In this document: piece after piece, positions 1 through 64,000 of the stretch | Numbering within the stretch: the first letter of the stretch is position 1 | Layout of the letters: each line of letters starts with the position of its first letter | Origin: Tausonia pullulans | Taxonomy: Eukaryota; Basidiomycota; Tremellomycetes; Cystofilobasidiales; Mrakiaceae | Direction: 5' to 3' | Assembly (NCBI GenBank): GCA_951802195.1 | Contig: OX637636.1 | Coordinates: 322,501-386,500 of the forward strand | DNA length: 64,000 bases | Notes under the pieces: model-generated | Seen by the model: only the letters and a program-made list of their open reading frames with translations | Databases searched by the model: none | What the model was told of the DNA's origin: nothing | Translations under genes and position numbers: made by a program

Positions 1-3000
1 AAGCTCATGGAAGTCGATCCGTCGGACATGGATTTCGACGACCTTTTCTCGGACGGCAATGACTTCAGCGGCTTTGGGAGGGTCGAGACGCCTCAGCCGA
101 AGGCTTCTTCCCAAATCCTTCGTCCTCGGTCTGTACCAGCACCGGCCCAAAAGGTGACCGTTGCGAGCCAGGCGCCCTCATCGAAGGAGGCAGCAGCGGC
201 GGCTGGGTCACCTTTGACACCCCAATTATCCTGCACCAACTCAATCAGCGACGCTCCCTTGCCACCTATTCCAGTTTCACAACATCCGTCGCAAACAAAA
301 ACAACCCCCGCCGCCGTCGCCTCTACACCTCATCCTCCATTGGCGCCCGTCCTGCTCTCGTCTTCGACTCCCCGTCGTCCTGTCTCTCAGTTCTCCGATA
401 CCGCCATCCGACCACCCCCCTTTCGCGCTCTTTCCTTCTCCAGCGCCTCTCGCCCCTCGCAGCCATCGCCTTCCGGCTCAGGCTCCTCCTCCATCGTCAA
501 CGGAACGCCCTCTCGAACCAAGAGCACCGCCCCCCGCACCGGCCTCGCCTCAACGCCCCTTCGAACGCCCCTTCTCTCTCGATCCAACACGCCCTCGGGC
601 TCATCCTCGTCTACCGCCCCGTCCGCCGCCACCGCCGCACCAACAGCGACGCCTCTCCGACGCATCGGCGTCGGCAACCTCGGCATGACCCCGCGCGGCA
701 GAGGAGGAGGAGGACCCGGCAGCGGGAGGAAGAAGTTTTCGACACCTTTTAAAGGGGGAGTCAAGCCACCTGTGGACGATGACGGCCGTGTTGTCTCGGC
801 TACAACGGCGACACCGGGGTCGTCGACCCGTCTGGCGGCGGGAGTGACAGGGCCGCAGCAGCACCTCCCACCGAGGTCGGCGATGATGTCAAGTGTCAAG
901 GGCAAAGAGCGGGAGACGCCGCGATACGATAAAGTGTTTGACCTGACGCGTGAGTCGCGTTCATCTTCTTCGTTGGGCGATAGTCGACAGCTGACTCCTT
1001 GCCCGCGATGCAGCGCCCGGGAAGCGCGTCTCGATGAGGGACTCGTTCGTCCGGCCTGAGTTCTACTCCATCAGCGAGCTTCGCGACATGCTCATGTTAG
1101 TCCCCTGTCTTCCTCTCTCTCGTCGTATTGTTGCCCTCTGACAAAGCTTCCTCTCCCTATTTGATCTTCAGCCCGGAAGAGATCTGGCAGATCAACCCTC
1201 AGAATGCTCACCTTTTCAGCTTTGTCCATCCAACCGACCCCTCCATTTCTCTGGGTCCCGAACTTGCCCTCGCGACCCTCGTCGACGCCGGCTGCCAGGG
1301 ACTCACTCGGATATGGGTCGACAACCACTGGGCACTCATCCTCTGGAAGCTGGCGAGCCTTGTGAGGAGCAAGCCAGCATGGTACATGGAGAACACTTGG
1401 AACTGGGAGGCGACGATCCGTCAGCTGAAGTATCGGTGCGCTGGGTCATTCCTGGGGTCACTCGTTTGGAGGAGCTGACCAAGCGCTGGACGACAGGTAT
1501 GAGCGCGAGCACAATCTCGGCCATCGCAGCGCCGTCAAGCGCATCCAAGAGGGCGACACTGCTCCGGGGTCTTCGATGATCCTTTGCGTCACAGCCATCA
1601 CTATGATCCCCGTCGAAACTCCTTTTGCAGCCAATAGCGCGGGAGGAGCAGGCGGAGGAGGTGAAGACGTCCCCACGCTCGAGCTCACCGATGGATGGTA
1701 CCGCATTCGGTCGGCCATCGATACTGTGCTCTCGCGGGCGGTTGCAAGGGGCAAGCTCCGTGTAGGCTGCAAAATCGCGATCTTTGGAGCAAGAGTACGG
1801 CCTTTAGTCTTTCTTCTTGTTTTGGAACCCTTCTGCTCACCAGTTTGTTCTTCATTTCCTACCTTCAGCTTGAAGGCGAGCCCGGATCGCCCGTCCTCCG
1901 TGCGTATGAGAAAACAACCCTCGTTCTCTCGGGGAACGGCACATCCCTCGCCCGGTGGGATGCCAAACTCGGGCTCCAGGCTTTACCTTTCGTCGCTGGT
2001 CTCTCGAGTCTCTCGCCCGAAGGAGGCGTCGTGCCCCGAATGGACATCGTTGTTGAGCGATGTTTCCCGCTGGGTTGGATTGACACACCCGCAGAGGTCG
2101 CTGGGGGTCCGCCCGCTGGTAAGACTGAGCCGAGCAAGGAAAGTGTGGGTGTTGGCGGCCCTGGTACGGCAGCTGAGCCGAGTATCCGTAGGGGGGAGAA
2201 GGAGGAACTCATTGAGCGGGAGAAGTGGGCGGTCAGTGGAGATGTTTATTCTCTCTTGTCGACTTCTCGGTCGATTGCGACTGACGATTGTTTATTGATG
2301 CAGGAGAATCACGACGCCGTCAAGTCTTCCCTCCTCGAGTCTATCGAGCGGCGCCTTGAGTTGCTTCTCTCACTCGCCGAACGTGTCGAACGGATGGCGT
2401 CGTCGTCGTCATTAACCGAAGCTGCTGCTAGCTTTGACCCAGACGACATCATCGACATCGTGCTGGGGCTCCCAACCTCTGCCACCCAAACGGACGACCT
2501 TCGCGGCCGGACGCTCTCGATGGCTCAGCTCAAGCAACTCGCGAGCACGGTCAAAGAGAGGTACCGGGAAAACCAGGCCGGTATTGAGACTGAAATTGAG
2601 CGCGAAATGGCCGTGCGTGCTCTCTACTCCTCTGTCTCTTCGACTGCGTCCCGCGCTGAACTCCGCATGCACGCATACTCTCAGATCCGCTGTCCTCCGC
2701 GCGAGAGCCGCTCGTTCCGGCTCATCTGGTTCCGGGACTTTCACCAACGGCCATCACTGGTGGGGTCGACGACGAGCGACGCAAAGCTTCCCCGGAGGGG
2801 CCAACTGACGCTCTGGGATGCCGCGGGCGGTGAGGACGGCCTCGACGGAGGATTTGGTGGCATGGATGGCGTGGGAGGGCTTGTGGAAGGGAAGCGGTAT
2901 ATTGTACGTTCCTCATGGGCAGGGTTGGAGCGAGGCAAAGAACAGCACTGACGTCTACACATGACCACAGGTGAGCAACCTTACACCCGGCCAGCGGTCA

Positions 3001-50652: not shown

Positions 50653-51765
50653 ATGTTTTCAGCAGCTGCTTCTGCTTCCTCCTGGCTTCCTTCTCGTTCG
50701 TTTCGCTATTGAACGGTTCTTGAGCATCTAGACGCGACCTCTGACACGGCTCCAACTACCTGTCATCCCATTCGCCCGGCCTTCTCTCCTGCGGCCTGCC
50801 TCGCATGCAGTGCCATCGTATCTTGGCGGGGGTCCATCCTCCTCTGTCGCTCCCAAAACCAAAGAGACCTTCGAAGAGGAGGAGGATGACGACCTGCCTC
50901 CCTCATTCCCTCTCCTAGACTCGGCCCAACGTTCCTCAGCCCGGCCCTCCTCATCCAACCTCGCTCCTCCTGCCTCCTCTTCAGCAGGTCTCATGCCCCC
51001 ACCAAGCTTCACCATTACTGCTCCTCCCCTCCGGTCCATCGAAGACCTCGATGATGATGACACCGAAATTCCGCGGAAGACGGCTGTTTCGAAGAAGAGC
51101 CTCCAGGAGCCGACCAAGACCGAGCGCGTAATCAAGAGCCGGGAGAAGGTCGCACTTGCGCCGGGTCACTCGGCTTTGGATTGGGCGAGGATCAAGGGCT
51201 CGGGCCAATATGAGGGCAAGAGCTTGAAAGTGCGTCAAGTATGGACTGAGCGTCTCGCGTCGCGTCGCGTCGAGGAAGGAATGGTGGTGGGGGGTACATG
51301 TGCATGGAATCACGCGAGTGTTACCCTCACACGACCCAGCTTTCGTTTATCGCAACGGCGTGGCATCTGGAGCATCATTGCATATCTCTTGCTGATCATC
51401 TATTCTCTCAACTCGTTTGCCAGGGCTCGATTGAGTCCTTCCCCCTGAGGGTCACTCCGTCGGAGCTCAAGCGCCACAACGGCCGTAACGGCGTTGACGC
51501 CTGGTCTTCCTTCAACGGTAAGGTATACAACATCACGCCTTACCGCAATTTCCATCCGGGTGGCGAGAAGGAGCTCATGCGGACGGCCGGCCGAGACGGG
51601 ACGAAGCTGTTCAGTGAGTGGCCATGTGAGAAACTCCGACCGTGTGTGCAAGTCTGATAAGTATATTCTGCCTCATTCTCGCTTGCATTAGTGGCGACGC
51701 ATGCCTGGGTCAACATCGACATGATGATGGACTCCTGCCTGGTAGGGATTATGGTCAGCGAGTAG
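50653..51765 (+). CDS. Cytochrome b5-fold heme-binding protein (IRC21-like)
   Basis: Exons 50653-50695, 50811-51229, 51424-51613 and 51692-51765 give 241 aa. The start is set by a small first exon (MFSAAASASSWLPS) spliced to LPSYLGGG; no ATG precedes the second exon in its frame. About 110 disordered, acidic/Ser/Pro residues lead to a cytochrome b5 domain: RVTPSELKRHNGRNGVDAW, SSFNGKVYNITPYRNFHPGG (heme-ligand His of the HPGG motif), ELMRTAGRDGTKLF, and MATHAWVNIDMMMDSCLVG, whose His is the second heme ligand. This arrangement resembles yeast Irc21 and relatives rather than membrane cytochrome b5, as there is no membrane anchor. The redox partner is unknown. It lies 165 bp after secreted protein B. 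Confidence 0.85.
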
Positions 51766-52246: not shown

Positions 52247-54856
52247 ATGTCCGGTGAGTGCTTCAAATACATTACTTGAACCGACTTGGTCTGATCTCAT
52301 CTACGGCACGCAGACCCGATCCTTTCCCTTCTCCTCGCTGCCAACTCGACGTCCTCATCCTCGTCCCCATCGGCCTCCGCCGCCCCGGGCCCCTCTGCTG
52401 CTCCTCCTACCGCCTCTCGCTTCCCTCCACCTGTCACCCGCGAGCAGCCCACGCCTGAGCCGGGGTACAAGGCGAACGGTCGCCCGCTGGGCCCGCTGAA
52501 GCGGCCGCCTGGTCGACCGAAGGGCTCCCGCAACAAGGGCAAGAGCGACGAGCCTGTCGTGAAGCGGCCTCGAGGCCGACCAAAGAAGGTCCGTCCGCGT
52601 TATAGCAGAGTGCACGTCCGAGGCTGACTGTGCATGCATGTCCTCGCTGTTCAGATCCGATCAGAGGAGGAGACGCGGTTGATTGAGCAGCGTGAGCGAG
52701 ACAGGGCTGCAGGGCTCATCAAGCGGGGTCGCCCGCCTAAGAAGAAGCCCGAGGTCGTCGTCGGGCAGCCTCGTGAGCCAGCGCTGCCGGCGCCAGGGTC
52801 TTCCTCCCCAAAGACAACTCCAGAATTAATCAAGCGGTCCGTTAGGGAGGCAGACCAAGCTCCCCGCAAGCGGCAGAAGACGGACAGCGTGTCGGTGAGT
52901 TGCCTCGTCCCTTCAGCGTGTCTGCCTTCTCGCGTCGCTTACACAAGCGTGCCTCTTCTGTATCAGACCTCTGTGCTGTCATCCTCTTCGACAAGCTCGA
53001 GACAGTCCGAGATCTCTCCATTGTTTAACATTGACTCGTTTATCAGCGTCCCATCGTCTTCGTCGTCCATCAACGTTCGTTCCTCTCGAATCTTAAAGCT
53101 TCACTCAACTCCGCTTACCCTGCCTGCCCTCTTCCTTCAGCACGCCCTCGAGCATCAGCGCCTCTGTTCTCCCCTCGACCCATCCTCCACGACACCCAAC
53201 TTACTACGCGAGATCCAAGAGTTCCATCAACGTCGGACGGCCGAGGAGCTATTGCGCCTCCACGACTCGGAGCCATCACGCCAAACACAAGTGAGCCTAT
53301 TTCCTGTTCGCTCAGTCTCAACTTCTGACAGCGTATTGTGTCGCGATCTCTTCAGTCTGCCGTCGAGGTCCCTCTCCAGCAGTCAAACGCACCACAGACA
53401 CTGCTGCCGACCTTGACGCCCTTCACCGCGGACACCGTCTTCGAACCGTTCTCGCCACTCTCGCTCAATTTCGACTTTGCAAGCCTCTTTAGGGATATCG
53501 AGTCGCTACCTGCTCTGAAGTCGTCGAACGGTAACGCGATCCGACGATCGGGCTCGGCACTGGGTCGAAAGCGGCCGGAGCTGAAACCGACGAGTGGGGG
53601 AGCAGCTGAGGTTTGTCTCAGCTTCTTCCTTTTTCTATCTGCAAGAGACTCACGGAACTCTCGCTCGCCTCGGCCTCAGACGGTCTCGAATCCTCCTCTC
53701 CCAACGGAGTTCTTCGATTACTCGAGCCTGCTCCGCGAGATCGAAGCCTATCCGCAGACGAGGCGACCTCGCGAGGATCACCCCCCTCCTCCCGTGCAAA
53801 CGACGGTCGACACAGCGCTCCTCATGCAGTCAGGTAACGATCCATCATCACCGACGATGACCTCGTTCGATACTACTTGGATTTCACCGGCCCCCGACGG
53901 TAGGCAGCAGCGGCAAAGCGACAACGCCCACCAGCACCAGGATGCCGCGACGGCGGCACTGTTCCCGCCCGATTTCGATATCAACCAGCTCCTTCGGGAG
54001 ATCGAAGAGTACCCCATTCGCAAGCACGGCCAATCGGGACCATCATCATCCTCTGGCGAGACTGTGCAGAACCATCCCAAGTCTTTCGTCAGTCAACCTC
54101 TCTCTTCTTGTGAATGCCGGGGGCTCAGTCGTTGCTTCTTCTATGCAGATGACCGAGCACCTCGATTACTCACGGCCGCACTTCACGCCGGACGCCATCG
54201 CCTCCTTCGTCGACCTGCCCGCGCTGCTCCGCGAGATACAAGAGGCCGGTCGACGCTCGCCGCACCCTCCAGAGCTGAGACGCATTTTCAGCGAGGAGGA
54301 GGGCTGGTTGGCACTTCATCACGAAGAGGCCGGTATAATGTCATCCTCCACCGGCGAGCAGTGGCTCAATGAGGGGGCGTTCGCAACGAGGGTGGCGGAT
54401 CATGGCCAAGTTCAGTCGACAAACGAAGTGCATTCCTTGTTGCTCAGCTCTGTCCGACCGGGATGGCTAATTGACCCAAACTCGCGTGCTCCTTACCAGA
54501 CCGCCTCCCATACCACATCCACCTTATCCTCTCCCCCCGCCCCCTCAGTTCCAATTCCCTCGTCTTCTCCTTCTTGCGACCCGCCGAGCCCAATTCTCCT
54601 TCTGCTACCCACTGCCGTCACCACACCAGCCCCATTACATCTTCCCACCACTTCTCCCACCCACCTCTCCTCCAGCCCTCATCGACCTCGTACGCCCTTC
54701 GAATCAGCGTCGTCGTCATCGACGATAGCGGCCGCCGTCAACCTTGACCAGTTCGCCTTCGACATGCAGACGTTCCTGAGGGAGATCCAGTCCCGCAGAC
54801 GGTGGGACGCCGATGGCGACGGGGACTTGGGTGCTGGCGGCGGGGGATGGTGCTGA
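52247..54856 (+). CDS. AT-hook protein with six LLREIE-type repeats
   Basis: Exons 52247-52253, 52314-52588, 52655-52894, 52967-53074, 53141-53290, 53356-53610, 53680-54087, 54149-54409 and 54500-54856 sum to 687 codons (686 aa). Exon 1 codes only ATGTCCG. Three AT-hook cores lie in the first ~130 residues (RPPGRPKGSRNKGK, KRPRGRPKK, KRGRPPKKK), implying minor-groove DNA binding in the nucleus. The rest is Ser/Pro-rich with six copies of a motif [FDV]D[FYILM]xx[LF][LF]R[ED]I[EQ]: LLREIQEFH, FASLFRDIESLP, YSSLLREIEAYP, INQLLREIEEYP, LPALLREIQEAG and MQTFLREIQSRR. They are spread over five exons and every intron after the first is phase 0. I do not know this repeat. A role as docking peptides for a partner is inference. 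Confidence 0.82.
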
Positions 54857-58787: not shown

Positions 58788-61700
58788 ATGGCGCCGCCCT
58801 CTCACCTCGGTAAGCGAAAGCATACCGATCAAATCATCAAGGCCACGGCCAACAGCGGCACGCCCCCTCTAAGGTTCGCCAACGCCCAAGAGTTCCGACA
58901 CGCGATCAGGGACGCCGAGCCCGAGACGGCCAAGGAGGGTGAGTGACTGCTCTTGAAGAGCGCCTAGAGGAACATTGTATCATTAAGGGTGGTGGGGAGA
59001 CAGGAAAAAGCCCAGATCGCGAAGGTGTATGCGCGCGCATGTCGTGGACTTCTGTCGGCGCTGTGTGACCTGCCGCCATCCTCTCGGTCGGTCAGCACCA
59101 TCATTCCTAGAGTATCAGTCTTTCCCTCCATATTGTGTACTGCTGGAGAACCTTCAGGCTTTCCTGAAGAAAGGACAGTGGACGCGTTCCAGGTTTTTTG
59201 AAGACACATGCACTGGCCCCCTACCCTCTGTCTTTCAGTCTGTCGTTGCGGCTTCAGCTATCAGGTGATCGAGGACTAACTATATGCATCCTGAATTCAG
59301 TCCTTATCGCTTTTCGCAACCAGCTTACCGTCAAGTACGACGAGCCGCCTGTATCGGCGACGGACGCGCGCGTCAAGCTCGCGCACGAGTATCTCGAGAA
59401 GAGCCCTGGAGCGGAGGAGATCTTTGATGCTTGGGATCTTGCCTTCACAGTGAGTCGCAGCTCCTCTAGTCACGCCGACTCTCAGCTCATCTGCCGTCTT
59501 TGCTCTCCAGTCTGGCCACGCCCTTCTTCTTCCTTTACCCCTGACGGCGATCGCCTCGCTCCTCGCGCTCCTCTCCCCGCTCTCCTTCTTTCACCCTCAC
59601 CTTCAACCGATTCTCACCCGGCTCCTCTCCCCGACAATCATCCGCTCCGTTGCCCAGTACCTCGCGGGCACGAGAACGGACCTCATTCTCGTCGCGCTCA
59701 AGGCGCTCGGCGAAGCCGTCCGCGTTGGAGAGCGCTGGGCCGGTCGCGTCTGGGAGGCTCTCGCGGGAGCCGGAGGCGTCAACGCTAAGGTCTGGGGCAA
59801 GCTCCTCGCCATGAAGCGCAAGATGTCTGGCGCTGGCGCCGAGGCGGGAGGCAGGCCGAAGAAGGGTAGCGTGGGCAACCCGTTCGCGACGCCCGATATC
59901 CGGGTCCTCACCCTCAACTTCCTGCTCTCGCTCCTCCTCGCGCCTCACCTCCCAACCAAGCTTGCTATCCTCGGCCAGTCGTCGGTCGTCAAGGCTATGT
60001 TCAAGCCAATTATCGAGGACCACCCGGCGGTCGTCCAGAGGCTCCTGCAGGGCTGGTGGGAGGTCTGGTTCCTCGAGAAGCGCATCGCGAGGGGTACCAA
60101 GCTCTCTGCTTTCGGGGCAGACGTTGTTGGCGAGATCGTCAAGCTCTACACCTCCTCGGCCGCAAGCAACAAGACGACCGGACCGGGCGAGGGCGAGGGC
60201 TATACGTCAAGGGAGCTCGCCCACCACTTCTTGGTTGCCATCCTCACCAAGCCTGGCGAGGGACTCTGCTTCAAGGATCAGGGATGGTATCCGCGCGGAA
60301 CCGAATCTGTCGACTTGCTCGACGACGAAGACCAGGGCGCTGGCTCAAAAGGTAGGGGAGGAACGGCCGCCGCTCACACGAGCGGAGTTCATAACAAGGT
60401 CATCCGCGAGGTCCTTCGGTCCATTGGCTCAGACGGTCTCGTTGGCGACGAGGACGGCGTCGCGCAGCTCGTGCTTAAAGTCCTCGAGAGTTGCCCGGAG
60501 CTCGTTGCGGGCTACTGGGCCTCGTCCGGCATCACCCTCGACCCCCGGCTCTCGTCCAAGTTCCTCATCTCCACGGCCCACCTCTGCTCCATTGTCTCAC
60601 TCCCGATCCCCACCTCAACGTTCCTCCTCCCGGCGTCGAACTCTGCGGCGCCCTCGACGTCGTCCTCCGTGGTGTCGCCCACCTACCGCGCGACTCCGCC
60701 GCCTCTCACGGCTATCATCGAGAACGTCCTGCCTTCCATCTTCCCGAAGCAGTTCTCAACCAAAGGTCTCCTCTCCAAGCACCCGCTCGTCCAGCAGACG
60801 ACTGCCGTCACCCTGTCCCGGTGCCTCGCCAAGCTTCACGCCGTCCTGACTACTTTCCAAACGATCGAACGCACGCTCGAGGAGAACCCGACCAAGGGCG
60901 CCTGGGCCGTCCGGAGGAGCGAGGTCGAGTGCGAGATGAGGAAGCGCATCCCGGATGTTGCTAACATCGTCGGATTCGCGCTCGCGGTTGCGAGGCAGGT
61001 CTCCGAGGCAACCACGTCTGAGGAGTCGTCCCGTGGTGTCATCCTCACCGAGGCGGCACTTCGCCTGCTGAGCCTCTACCATCTTACACTTCCAGGACTC
61101 ATCGCTGAGGCGCGCTTTGACGTCGGCAAACTCCTCGTCCCCGGTGCGGCCGAGGGCGCCGGAGGAGGCAAGGGCAAGGCCCGCGAGGAGGATGGTTCGT
61201 CGGCTCTTGCTGCCACCACCGCTGGCGATGGATGGGGCTTTGCGCGCGCGGATCTTGAGGGGGTCGAGGCTCTTAGTCAGCTGCATGTTCTCCGCCTCGT
61301 CGGCGAGGGAGGCAACTTTGCTTGGTCCTCGAAGGCTGGGTCTCACTCGCCGCACACCTACATGTACCACCTCCTCCGGCTCTACCTCGCCACACCTCAC
61401 CCGGCCACCAGGTCGACGACCTCGACGCTCATCACTCGGCTCCTCAGCTCGTCCGTTCTCTTTGAGCACGACCCTTCCGAGATTGCCATCTGGCTCACGA
61501 GCCTCCCCGCATGGGCTGCGGTGGACGGCGCCGCGAGGGAGACGCTCGTTGACTTCCTCGACGATTCCATCCGGCGATGCATTAAAACGCCATACAAGTA
61601 CCTCGAGGCCTCACTCCACTTTGCCCCCTCCCCCGCCGGCAGCCTCACTCCGGCCTCAGCGACCCCTCCCGCCGAGGCGTCTTCGCCTCTGCTCATGACG

Positions 61701-64000
61701 CTCCTCGAGCAGTTCGCCGCCAAAGTCAAGGCGGGACTTCTAGTCGACCACGAGCAAGTTGCCCTCGTCGCGGCGTACGTTCGTCGGCTGGCGTTCGCAC
61801 TCGTCGGGAAGCAGACTGGTCTCACGTACGCCAGGGAGGTCGCGCGGAAGCTCGATGAGACTCTTCGCGCGGCTGGAGAAGCTGGCGAGGAGGGCAAGCT
61901 CGGCAGGGAGTTGGATCTGCTTGAGACGGCAGGTCTCAGCAGTGAAATGGAGTTCGATCAGGGTGCGCTGTCAATCTTACCAATTTGACGAACAAGGACC
62001 GCCGGACTGATGACCGATCTCTTGGCCTTTTGTATCATTCCAGCTTCCGACCCCCTCGCCTTCGATCTCTCGCTCCTGACCTCGACTGCTGACATCCGCT
62101 GCCAGACTCGCCTGGTTCTCCATCGCGTGAACGGTCTGCTCCGCCTCCCGCGTGAGAAGGCTGCGAAGGAGTCCAAGAAGTCCAAGAAGAGCAGTAACCC
62201 CTCATCGTCGTTGGCCGGAACCAGGGACGACGTCTCCGATGCCCTCATCCGCTGTGTTCGCTTGCTGGAGACACTAGTTTGTGCGAGGGACGTGACGACC
62301 GACATCAAGCGGCTCATCCTCATGGATAAGGCAGCCATGGAGCTGCTCATGCTCGAGAAGGTCTCGTCGGAACTCCGCTCCACCATTGGAGCGTTCATTA
62401 GGGCGGGCTTTAACCCTCTTTCGGCTGCCGACTGCGAGGTTACCCAAGCCTATCAGGACTGGACGACTAGTGTCCTCGCCTCGTCGTCTGCGAAGTCCCT
62501 CGGCAAGGTGAGAAATCACGCACTTCTCGACTCTCTCTGATGCAACCATTGACGAATTCTTCCCTCTTCGCAGCACGCTTCGAGTGTCCTCCCCTGGATT
62601 CCCTTCCTTGAAGTCTCCTCGCTTGTCGCCAATGCCGACGCTGTTCTCGCGGCGCTCTCGTTTGCCTCATCCGACAAGTCTCGTGCCTCGCTCGAGTCCC
62701 TCCTCGGCGCCCTTTTTGGCGCGCTCCGCTCGCACCCTCCAACAGCTGCGACGCTCGCGCTTGCTCAGCGCTCGCTACCGGTCCTCCTCCCGCTTGGGAT
62801 GCTCTCAACTGTCGTCGACCTCCTCGATGTCTCTCTCCCGCCAGGTCACACTGCTAGCTCAGCGGCCATACACGCTCAGCGCTCGATTCGAGACCTCACC
62901 GTCGCGGTGGACTCGACCTGCTCCGAGGCGTTCAACCCAGTTTTTTCGACTGTCAGCGGTGCCACAGCTGCTGCCACATTTGGGTCGGATCTTCTTACCG
63001 GAGGCAGCCTCTCCCTCGACAAGGCCGCCCTCTTCACCCCCTTCATCTACCAATCTGGTTTAGCGCGCGACATCTTTGGCGCATGGCTCAAGGAGAACCT
63101 CGCGGGTCTTGCCCAAGCGGATCTTGAGTCGATCGTCAGCCCAACCGCCGCCTTTGTCGAGGTCGCTGCGGTCCAGGAGGACCCGTCGCTGTCAATACCC
63201 GGCTGGTCGACGGTCGTCGAGGCGCTCCCACGGCTCATCAAGACCTATCTCAGCTCAAACGATGCCAAGCAGGCCGTCGCTCTTGAAAGGTCAATCGCCC
63301 TCCTCGCTCATGGCGGGGACGAGGCGTCCGTCGTGGCCAGTCTCGCCGTCGAAGGCCTGCCTGCGCTCCACCTCCCTCGACTCGCCCCGATCTTTGCGGA
63401 TCTCGCCGTCAAAGGCCGCAAAGAGCTCATTAAGCCCATCGATGCCTACGTTGACGCCAGTCTCGAGTGGCTCGTCCGCAAGCTCTCGGACACGGGGTCC
63501 ATCGACGATGCCACGATCACTTTGATGAAGGCTCTTGGTCAGTTACTCTACCCTGTTCTTGATCACCCACTGCGCTGAATTCTGACGCCTCTTCCTCCTG
63601 ACAGCCAAGCTCGTCCGGACTCGTCCCTCTGGCTCGCTGAAGGCGCATCTCGTCGAGCCGGTCTTTACTGTCATTCTTCAGGACCGCATGACGTGCCTTC
63701 CGGCGCTTGAACTCGTCCCGGTCTGCGCTGCGAAGACGACCATGAAAGTGAGAGGATCGCTGGTGCCCTGTCTCAGACCAACAATTGTTGAATCCTCCTC
63801 TTTCTTCCCAGCCCGCTGTCGTCGTCAAGCAGCTCCAGACACTTCTCGCCAACCGGAACTTTTCCGCCTTTTCTTCTTCGTCCGCCGAGGCCGTCGCCCT
63901 CCGGCCAGTTGTCGTCGCAGCCATCCGTGCCCTCTTCGACATGTCCCCCGCGACGTGTTGTCAGCCAGCCCACATCGAGCCCCTCATGACGCTCTATCGA
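58788..64000 (+). CDS. URB1: URB1/NPA1 nucleolar pre-60S assembly factor (3' partial)
   Basis: N-terminal part of a very large helical-repeat protein of the Npa1 complex, which acts in the earliest nucleolar pre-60S particles. Exon 1 is 58788-58938 (MAPPSHLGKRKHTDQI...), followed by an unusually long intron (58939-59300). Later introns fall near 59,451-59,511, 61,963-62,042, 62,508-62,574, 63,529-63,604 and 63,748-63,812. Recognisable Npa1 N-terminal features are FANAQEFRHAIR, AHEYLEKSPGAEEIF, HPHLQPILTRLLSPT, RSVAQYLAGTRTDL, KVWGKLLAMKRKM, RVLTLNFLLSLLLAP, and AYRR-like helices through to the edge. The frame is open at base 64000, so the C-terminal domain lies outside. The assignment rests on the N-terminal block and overall character. 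Confidence 0.85.

What the first reader, a model, noticed from the sequence alone, without database searches (positions are those of the whole stretch)
53192..54796. Six-fold LLREIE motif in an AT-hook protein
The AT-hook protein at 52247-54856 carries six copies of a 12-15 residue motif at 53192-53227, 53470-53511, 53713-53754, 53974-54015, 54209-54247 and 54758-54796. The core is D-[FYILM]-x-x-[LF]-[LF]-R-[ED]-I-[EQ]-x-[YLF]-P. Spacing is irregular and the DNA between them is low-complexity, so these look like short linear motifs or amphipathic helices kept by selection, six times over, in a DNA-tethered protein. I know of no named family with this repeat. It could be a multivalent docking scaffold placed on AT-rich DNA.
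Basis: partly seen in the sequence, partly recalled or inferred. Interest (0 to 1): 0.75.

Follow-up and report, generated by a model that had tools for sequence, protein, structure and literature searches.

The report
AT-hook protein with six docking helices
A fungal gene encodes a probable DNA-binding protein that repeats one short, probably helical peptide six times in an otherwise floppy tail, most likely so that several copies of one unidentified partner protein can be gathered on AT-rich DNA.

Summary
The observation largely holds. The gene at 52247-54856 reads best as eight exons; the conceptual 716-aa product puts all six copies in one frame and has three AT-hook-like stretches. Between copies, silent sites are as different as random codons (pS 0.77) while amino-acid change is low (pN 0.15; flanks 0.70-0.71), so the peptide is old and constrained, or was reinvented. 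AlphaFold2 on bare exons draws helices on copies 3 and 4 (confident) and 5 and 6 (weak). Of 24 core hits in the genome, six are these; none of the other 18 has F-D before it. Best reading: a DNA-tethered, multivalent array of docking helices for one globular partner, probably a chromatin co-regulator. The partner is not identified; Tup1 (eh1-like), Sin3, Mediator and PP2A-B56 readings fit in part or poorly. Orthologues, on which the claim hangs, could not be tested: no fungal genome collection is on hand and the protein search may miss multi-exon genes. Moderate interest.

The parts
52247..54856 (+). whole gene, 8 exons, 716-aa spliced product (conceptual)
   Evidence: gene model, phases, exon list
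52254..52313 (+). intron 1, 60 nt, needed (in-frame stops)
52589..52654 (+). intron 2, 66 nt, needed (in-frame TGA)
52895..52966 (+). intron 3, 72 nt, in frame without stop, could be retained
53075..53140 (+). intron 4, 66 nt, in frame without stop, could be retained
53291..53355 (+). intron 5, 65 nt, needed (frame shift)
53611..53679 (+). intron 6, 69 nt, in frame without stop, could be retained
54088..54148 (+). intron 7, 61 nt, needed (frame shift)
52499..52531 (+). AT-hook-like 1, KRPPGRPKGSR (aa 65-75)
   Evidence: sequence; no Pfam hit at E up to 1 for the protein or this exon
52562..52588 (+). AT-hook-like 2, KRPRGRPKK (aa 86-94)
   Evidence: sequence; no Pfam hit
52721..52747 (+). AT-hook-like 3, KRGRPPKKK (aa 117-125)
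   Evidence: sequence; no Pfam hit
52865..52879 (+). basic RKRQK, possible nuclear localisation signal
   Evidence: sequence only
53024..53044 (+). possible decayed copy FNIDSFI in exon 4 (keeps F-x-I-x-x-F-I, lacks REI); not counted
53192..53227 (+). copy 1 TPNLLREIQEFH (lacks F-D half), exon 5
53470..53511 (+). copy 2 FDFASLFRDIESLP, exon 6
53713..53754 (+). copy 3 FDYSSLLREIEAYP, exon 7; predicted helix
53974..54015 (+). copy 4 FDINQLLREIEEYP, exon 7; predicted helix
54152..54172 (+). possible half copy TEHLDYS (first 20 nt 80% like 53704-53723); not counted
   Evidence: repeat D4
54209..54247 (+). copy 5 VDLPALLREIQEA, exon 8; weakly predicted helix
54758..54796 (+). copy 6 FDMQTFLREIQSR, exon 8; weakly predicted helix

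Best explanation
A nuclear AT-hook protein whose long disordered tail carries six copies of one short docking helix (F-D-hydrophobic-x-x-L-L-R-E-I-[E/Q]; D as helix cap; hydrophobic face at positions 3, 6, 7, 10 and, in four of six copies, 13). The AT-hooks tether it to AT-rich DNA; each helix folds on, and binds, the same groove of one globular partner, so several weak contacts add up to strong, tunable recruitment. Most likely the partner is a chromatin co-regulator (Tup1, Sin3 or Mediator class). Shown here: the six copies, a gene model with them in one frame, constraint at peptide level between copies, predicted helicity of four copies. Inferred: DNA binding, nuclear location, docking, multivalency, partner class.
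For: Six cores versus 0.00035 expected. Over the 15 copy pairs, core pS 0.77 and pN 0.15, while upstream and downstream flanks have pN 0.71 and 0.70, like random sextets (mean 0.73, lowest 0.58 of 2000). R8 and I10 are 6 of 6, position 9 is E or D in 6 of 6, D2 5 of 6, F1 4 of 6. Exon 7 fold: only two helices, residues 14-23 and 101-110, on copies 3 and 4 and starting just after the D; the 10-residue blocks holding most of them average pLDDT 82 and 92; of all 136 residues 62 are under 50 and 41 at 50-70. Exon 8 fold: the 23 residues at pLDDT 50 or more all lie within 22-35, 177, 203-215 and 227-229, that is mostly copies 5 and 6. Hydrophobic moment at 100 degrees in the 90.9-99.0 percentile for all six. 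Three AT-hook-like stretches. Of 24 core hits in the genome the five with [FV]-D at positions 1-2 are copies 2-6 of this gene.
Against: Exon 8 is a poor model (mean pLDDT 41, no residue over 70) and draws four more helices away from the motifs (14-18, 44-47, 70-84, 91-100). No alignment depth, no control fold of a shuffled exon; copies 1 and 2 were not folded. Copy 6's moment is as high at 160 as at 100 degrees (0.48, 0.50). No orthologue seen, so constraint is inferred between copies only, and the copies were chosen by peptide likeness. Copy 1 lacks the N-terminal half, copy 6 is basic after the core. AT-hooks were called by eye and pattern; Pfam gave none. The core pattern has 18 other hits in the genome, more than the 6 of its backward control. 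No expression evidence.
Confidence: 0.6

Rival explanations
1. Specific version of the best explanation: an eh1-like array that recruits the Tup1 corepressor WD40 propeller (F-x-hydrophobic-x-x-L-L), as eh1 peptides do for Groucho/TLE (recalled).
For: A relaxed eh1-like pattern of my own hits 6 places in the protein: copies 2-6 and the decayed exon-4 copy. A Tup1-like gene is in the genome (Tup_N over cut-off on profile positions 1-36 of 77; WD40-like sequence beside it, read by eye).
Against: The eh1 regular expression as I recall it fits only 1 of 6 copies. It does not explain invariant R8 and I10, and copy 1 has no F. A search for tup1, eh1, wd40, motif and fungal together gave 0 papers.
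Confidence: 0.18
2. PP2A-B56 docking: LREI[EQ]E is the LxxIxE motif (recalled), used in several copies to bring the phosphatase to chromatin.
For: L-x-x-I-x-E is present in copies 1, 4 and 5 and nowhere else in the protein. A B56 subunit gene is in the genome.
Against: Copies 2, 3 and 6 lack the final E (S, A, S); F1, D2, L6 and R8 are unexplained; LxxIxE is bound without a long helix (recalled), whereas helices are predicted.
Confidence: 0.12
3. Tandem transcription activation domains that contact Mediator (Med15) or a like coactivator; hydrophobic-xx-hydrophobic-hydrophobic-xx-hydrophobic as in KIX ligands (recalled).
For: That spacing is in copies 2-6 and nowhere else in the protein.
Against: The tiles round the copies (53 aa, one of 51) are hardly acidic (net charge +1 to -5), while in budding yeast acidic residues were needed in all but one of the tested activation domains and strength followed composition, not motifs (PMC8137143, passages seen). 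Strict residue conservation is not expected of such fuzzy binding. The spacing alone is not rare: 5 or more in 415 of 20,000 shuffles. No KIX domain was found, but the control rang nowhere, so this says nothing.
Confidence: 0.13
4. Sin3 docking: the helices bind PAH domains.
For: Seven PAH hits over cut-off in the genome, two clusters of three plus one; amphipathic helices are the usual PAH ligand (recalled).
Against: The two Sin3-ligand patterns I recall fit 0 of 6 copies.
Confidence: 0.08
5. The helices bind each other (self-association of the protein on DNA).
For: Identical amphipathic helices in one chain could pair (inference).
Against: The helices predicted on copies 3 and 4 are only 10 residues long, short for a stable coiled coil; nothing computed here supports pairing (pTM 0.20 and 0.21), though these models are too poor to exclude it.
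Confidence: 0.07
6. Chance or recent neutral duplication.
For: Some DNA likeness remains: three copies are 79-89% like copy 3 over 19 nt.
Against: Chance excluded by shuffles; recent neutral duplication disfavoured by pN 0.15 with pS at the level of random codons.
Confidence: 0.02

Closest known systems
eh1 / Groucho-Tup1 recruitment motif (recalled)
   Same: F-x-hydrophobic-x-x-L-L short amphipathic helix in a DNA-binding protein
   Different: strict recalled pattern in 1 of 6 copies; conserved R-E-I extension; six copies in one protein
PP2A-B56 LxxIxE motif (recalled)
   Same: LxxIxE in copies 1, 4, 5
   Different: three copies lack the E; helix and F-D half have no role in it
Sin3-interaction (SID) helices (recalled)
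   Same: short amphipathic helix
   Different: two recalled patterns fit 0 of 6
KIX-binding activation helices (recalled)
   Same: spacing of hydrophobic residues in 5 of 6
   Different: surroundings not acidic, strictly conserved residues
HMGA-type AT-hook proteins (recalled)
   Same: three GRP-cored basic stretches
   Different: long tail with repeated helices; no Pfam hit

Membership tests
AT-hook proteins | G-R-P core in basic surroundings (recalled) | tested here: met
   three stretches by eye and pattern
AT-hook proteins | match to a Pfam AT-hook model | tested here: not met
   0 families at E up to 1 for the protein and for the two exons that hold them; the model is very short (recalled), so weak evidence
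AT-hook proteins | binds AT-rich DNA | not testable with these tools
   needs a DNA-binding assay
eh1 motif | ELM-type pattern (recalled) in the copies | tested here: not met
   1 of 6; my relaxed version 5 of 6
eh1 motif | partner of the Tup1/Groucho class in the genome | tested here: met
PP2A-B56 LxxIxE | L-x-x-I-x-E | tested here: inconclusive
   3 of 6 copies
PP2A-B56 LxxIxE | B56 subunit in the genome | tested here: met
Sin3 SID | two recalled SID patterns | tested here: not met
   0 of 6
Nuclear-receptor box LxxLL | recalled pattern without P | tested here: not met
   0 of 6
Acidic activation domain | high acidic plus hydrophobic content of about 53-aa tiles | tested here: not met
   net charge +1 to -5; criterion from passages of PMC8137143; no predictor was run
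Any Pfam-A family | match of the spliced protein | tested here: not met
   0 families at E up to 1
Any docking-motif family | copies conserved across orthologues | not testable with these tools

The most novel reading that the evidence does not exclude
A new kind of docking helix (F-D-hydrophobic-x-x-L-L-R-E-I-[E/Q]), multiplied within a single AT-hook protein of a basidiomycete lineage, that defines an undescribed recruitment interface: the partner carries a groove reading R8 and I10, and copy number sets the strength with which it is held on AT-rich DNA.
Probability: 0.3. Interest if true: 0.6.

Novelty: new variant of a known kind. Interest (0 to 1): 0.42.

Why it matters
If the six helices bind one partner, this would be a naturally graded multivalent recruiter in which copy number can be cut step by step, making the link between docking valency and gene control directly testable; finding the partner would either place a known co-regulator in a new arrangement or reveal a new recruitment motif.

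Tried and rejected
Protein database: residues 170-716 (only the 7987 candidates sharing most words were scored, none at E 0.001) and residues 435-520 (307 candidates, none at E 1). A coverage test with the neighbouring Npa1-like frame found 19 proteins at E 0.001 among the 7997 candidates scored, one at 99% and five at 54-66% identity, so this or a very near species and relatives are held. But hits must be 0.55-1.75 times the query's length; if introns cut genes into single open frames there, as I suspect, an eight-exon orthologue would be missed. The two negatives therefore do not show an orphan. That test used the third and last search, so I could not repeat with exon-sized queries.

PDB: one copy, none at E 10; six-copy profile, 13 sequences at E 0.13-3.5 (EH-domain protein, enoyl reductases, gp41 constructs and others), taken as chance. 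Exon 7 alone (136 of 716 aa) against viral contigs: 4 pattern matches, none confirmed; against prokaryote genomes: 85 pattern matches, none confirmed. Paralogue in own genome: nine matches at E up to 1 with 15 candidates scored, seven are this gene's own exons; L009 (E 7e-4) read by eye as low-complexity without the motif; L010 (E 0.29) was not examined. Rfam 0 and tRNA 0 in the window.

Papers (all 10 searches used): LLREIE 0; AT-hook, amphipathic helix, repeat, Rhodotorula 0; tup1, eh1, wd40, motif, fungal 0; AT-hook, Tup1, corepressor, fungal 0. Listings with starts of abstracts only, in which I saw nothing on this protein: 2 of 2; 13 of 13; 12 of 13; 15 of 79; 8 of 28. No paper was read whole.

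Rejected: acidic dileucine sorting signal ([DE]xxxL[LI] in 3 of 6 copies), because the protein looks nuclear (inference); FFAT-like pattern (0 of 6); corepressor-box pattern recalled for nuclear receptors (0 of 6).

Full report
What is there. The window lies in a 23.9-Mb genome of 21 contigs. Neighbouring frames include a cytochrome b5 domain upstream and an Npa1-like ribosome-biogenesis protein downstream. Two of the latter's 19 relatives carry organism names, Athelia and Steccherinum, at 37% and 35% identity; both are basidiomycetes (recalled), so a basidiomycete is likely.

Gene model. The raw frame from 52247 is broken by stops. Removing seven GT-AG introns of 60-72 nt gives an uninterrupted 716-aa protein. 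Six of the seven introns are phase 0, intron 1 is phase 1. Four introns are forced by stops or frame shift, three are optional. I chose the splice sites by eye; no RNA evidence was available. Third-position GC in 40-codon blocks is 0.60-0.85 except at codons 601-680 (0.55 and 0.57), so the Ser/Pro/Leu-rich stretch before copy 6 is the least certain part of the model.

The repeat. The six cores start at residues 231, 304, 362, 449, 507 and 690 and fall in exons 5, 6, 7, 7, 8 and 8. Position by position: F 4 of 6, D 5 of 6, hydrophobic 5 of 6, free, free, L or F 6 of 6, L or F 6 of 6, R 6 of 6, E or D 6 of 6, I 6 of 6, E or Q 6 of 6. A decayed copy (FNIDSFI, exon 4) and a half copy (TEHLDYS, exon 8) may exist; they are suggestions, not counted.

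Selection. Over all 15 pairs of copies, synonymous differences in the core are as high as between random codons of the gene (pS 0.77 against a mean of 0.72), while non-synonymous differences are 0.15 against a mean of 0.73 and a minimum of 0.58 in 2000 random sextets; the flanks show 0.71 and 0.70. The copies were picked by peptide likeness, so low pN is partly built in; the informative point is the saturation of silent sites, which speaks against recent copying. Old duplication with lost flanks and repeated reinvention of a short motif fit equally well.

Structure. Two AlphaFold2 runs without alignment, the two allowed. Exon 7: two helices only, on copies 3 and 4, each starting just after the conserved D; 33 of 136 residues reach pLDDT 70, 62 are under 50. 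Exon 8: helices at copies 5 and 6 of low confidence; the 23 of 235 residues at 50 or more lie almost all there, and four other low-confidence helices are also drawn. Copies 1 and 2 were not folded, and no shuffled control was run.

Uniqueness. The core pattern gave 24 hits in the genome (17 forward, 7 reverse) against 6 for the same pattern read backwards; six of the 24 are these copies. I read the context of the other 18 (11, 7), without regard to introns: none has F-D at positions 1-2, one (L015) has D-L at 2-3, five encode S where the motif has R (the pattern allows it), and 12 have a stop within 40 codons. The pattern would miss looser variants. No paralogue was found (L009 read, L010 not examined).

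How it most likely works. The AT-hook-like stretches hold the protein on AT-rich DNA; the disordered tail offers six short helices to one partner. The hydrophobic positions 3, 6, 7, 10 (and 13 in four copies) make one face, D2 caps the helix, and the invariant R8 and near-invariant E9 point to a specific contact, not to fuzzy binding. Tiles round the copies are not strongly acidic, which speaks against an ordinary acidic activation domain (criterion from passages of PMC8137143). Candidate partners exist in the genome: Tup1, PAH proteins, B56; KIX was not found, but the control rang nowhere. None of the motif patterns tried fits all six copies. The partner therefore stays open.

Known or new. 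No Pfam family, no PDB relative beyond what I take as chance and no paper in the library with the literal LLREIE. DNA-bound proteins with several copies of a docking motif are a known kind (recalled); this motif in this form was not found in the libraries searched. Hence: new variant of a known kind, with the orthologue test, on which the claim hangs, not run.

Noticed in passing
window 51400-51654 (+): Cytochrome b5-like domain (Pfam Cyt-b5, E 5e-17) in the gene just upstream.
   Followed up: no
window 59454-61988 (+): Npa1-like ribosome biogenesis protein in one long frame, with a 99% relative in the protein database.
   Followed up: partly
window 1695-2951 (+): Weak match to the BRCA2 OB1 domain (23.4 bits, below the 25.6 cut-off).
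   Followed up: no
G000 C4:794488-795667 and C7:40591-42053: Two clusters of three PAH hits each, suggesting two Sin3-like genes, plus a single hit on C15.
   Followed up: no
window 52254-54148: Six of the seven introns of the AT-hook gene are phase 0 and three are stop-free multiples of three, so retention would add peptides without breaking the frame.
   Followed up: no
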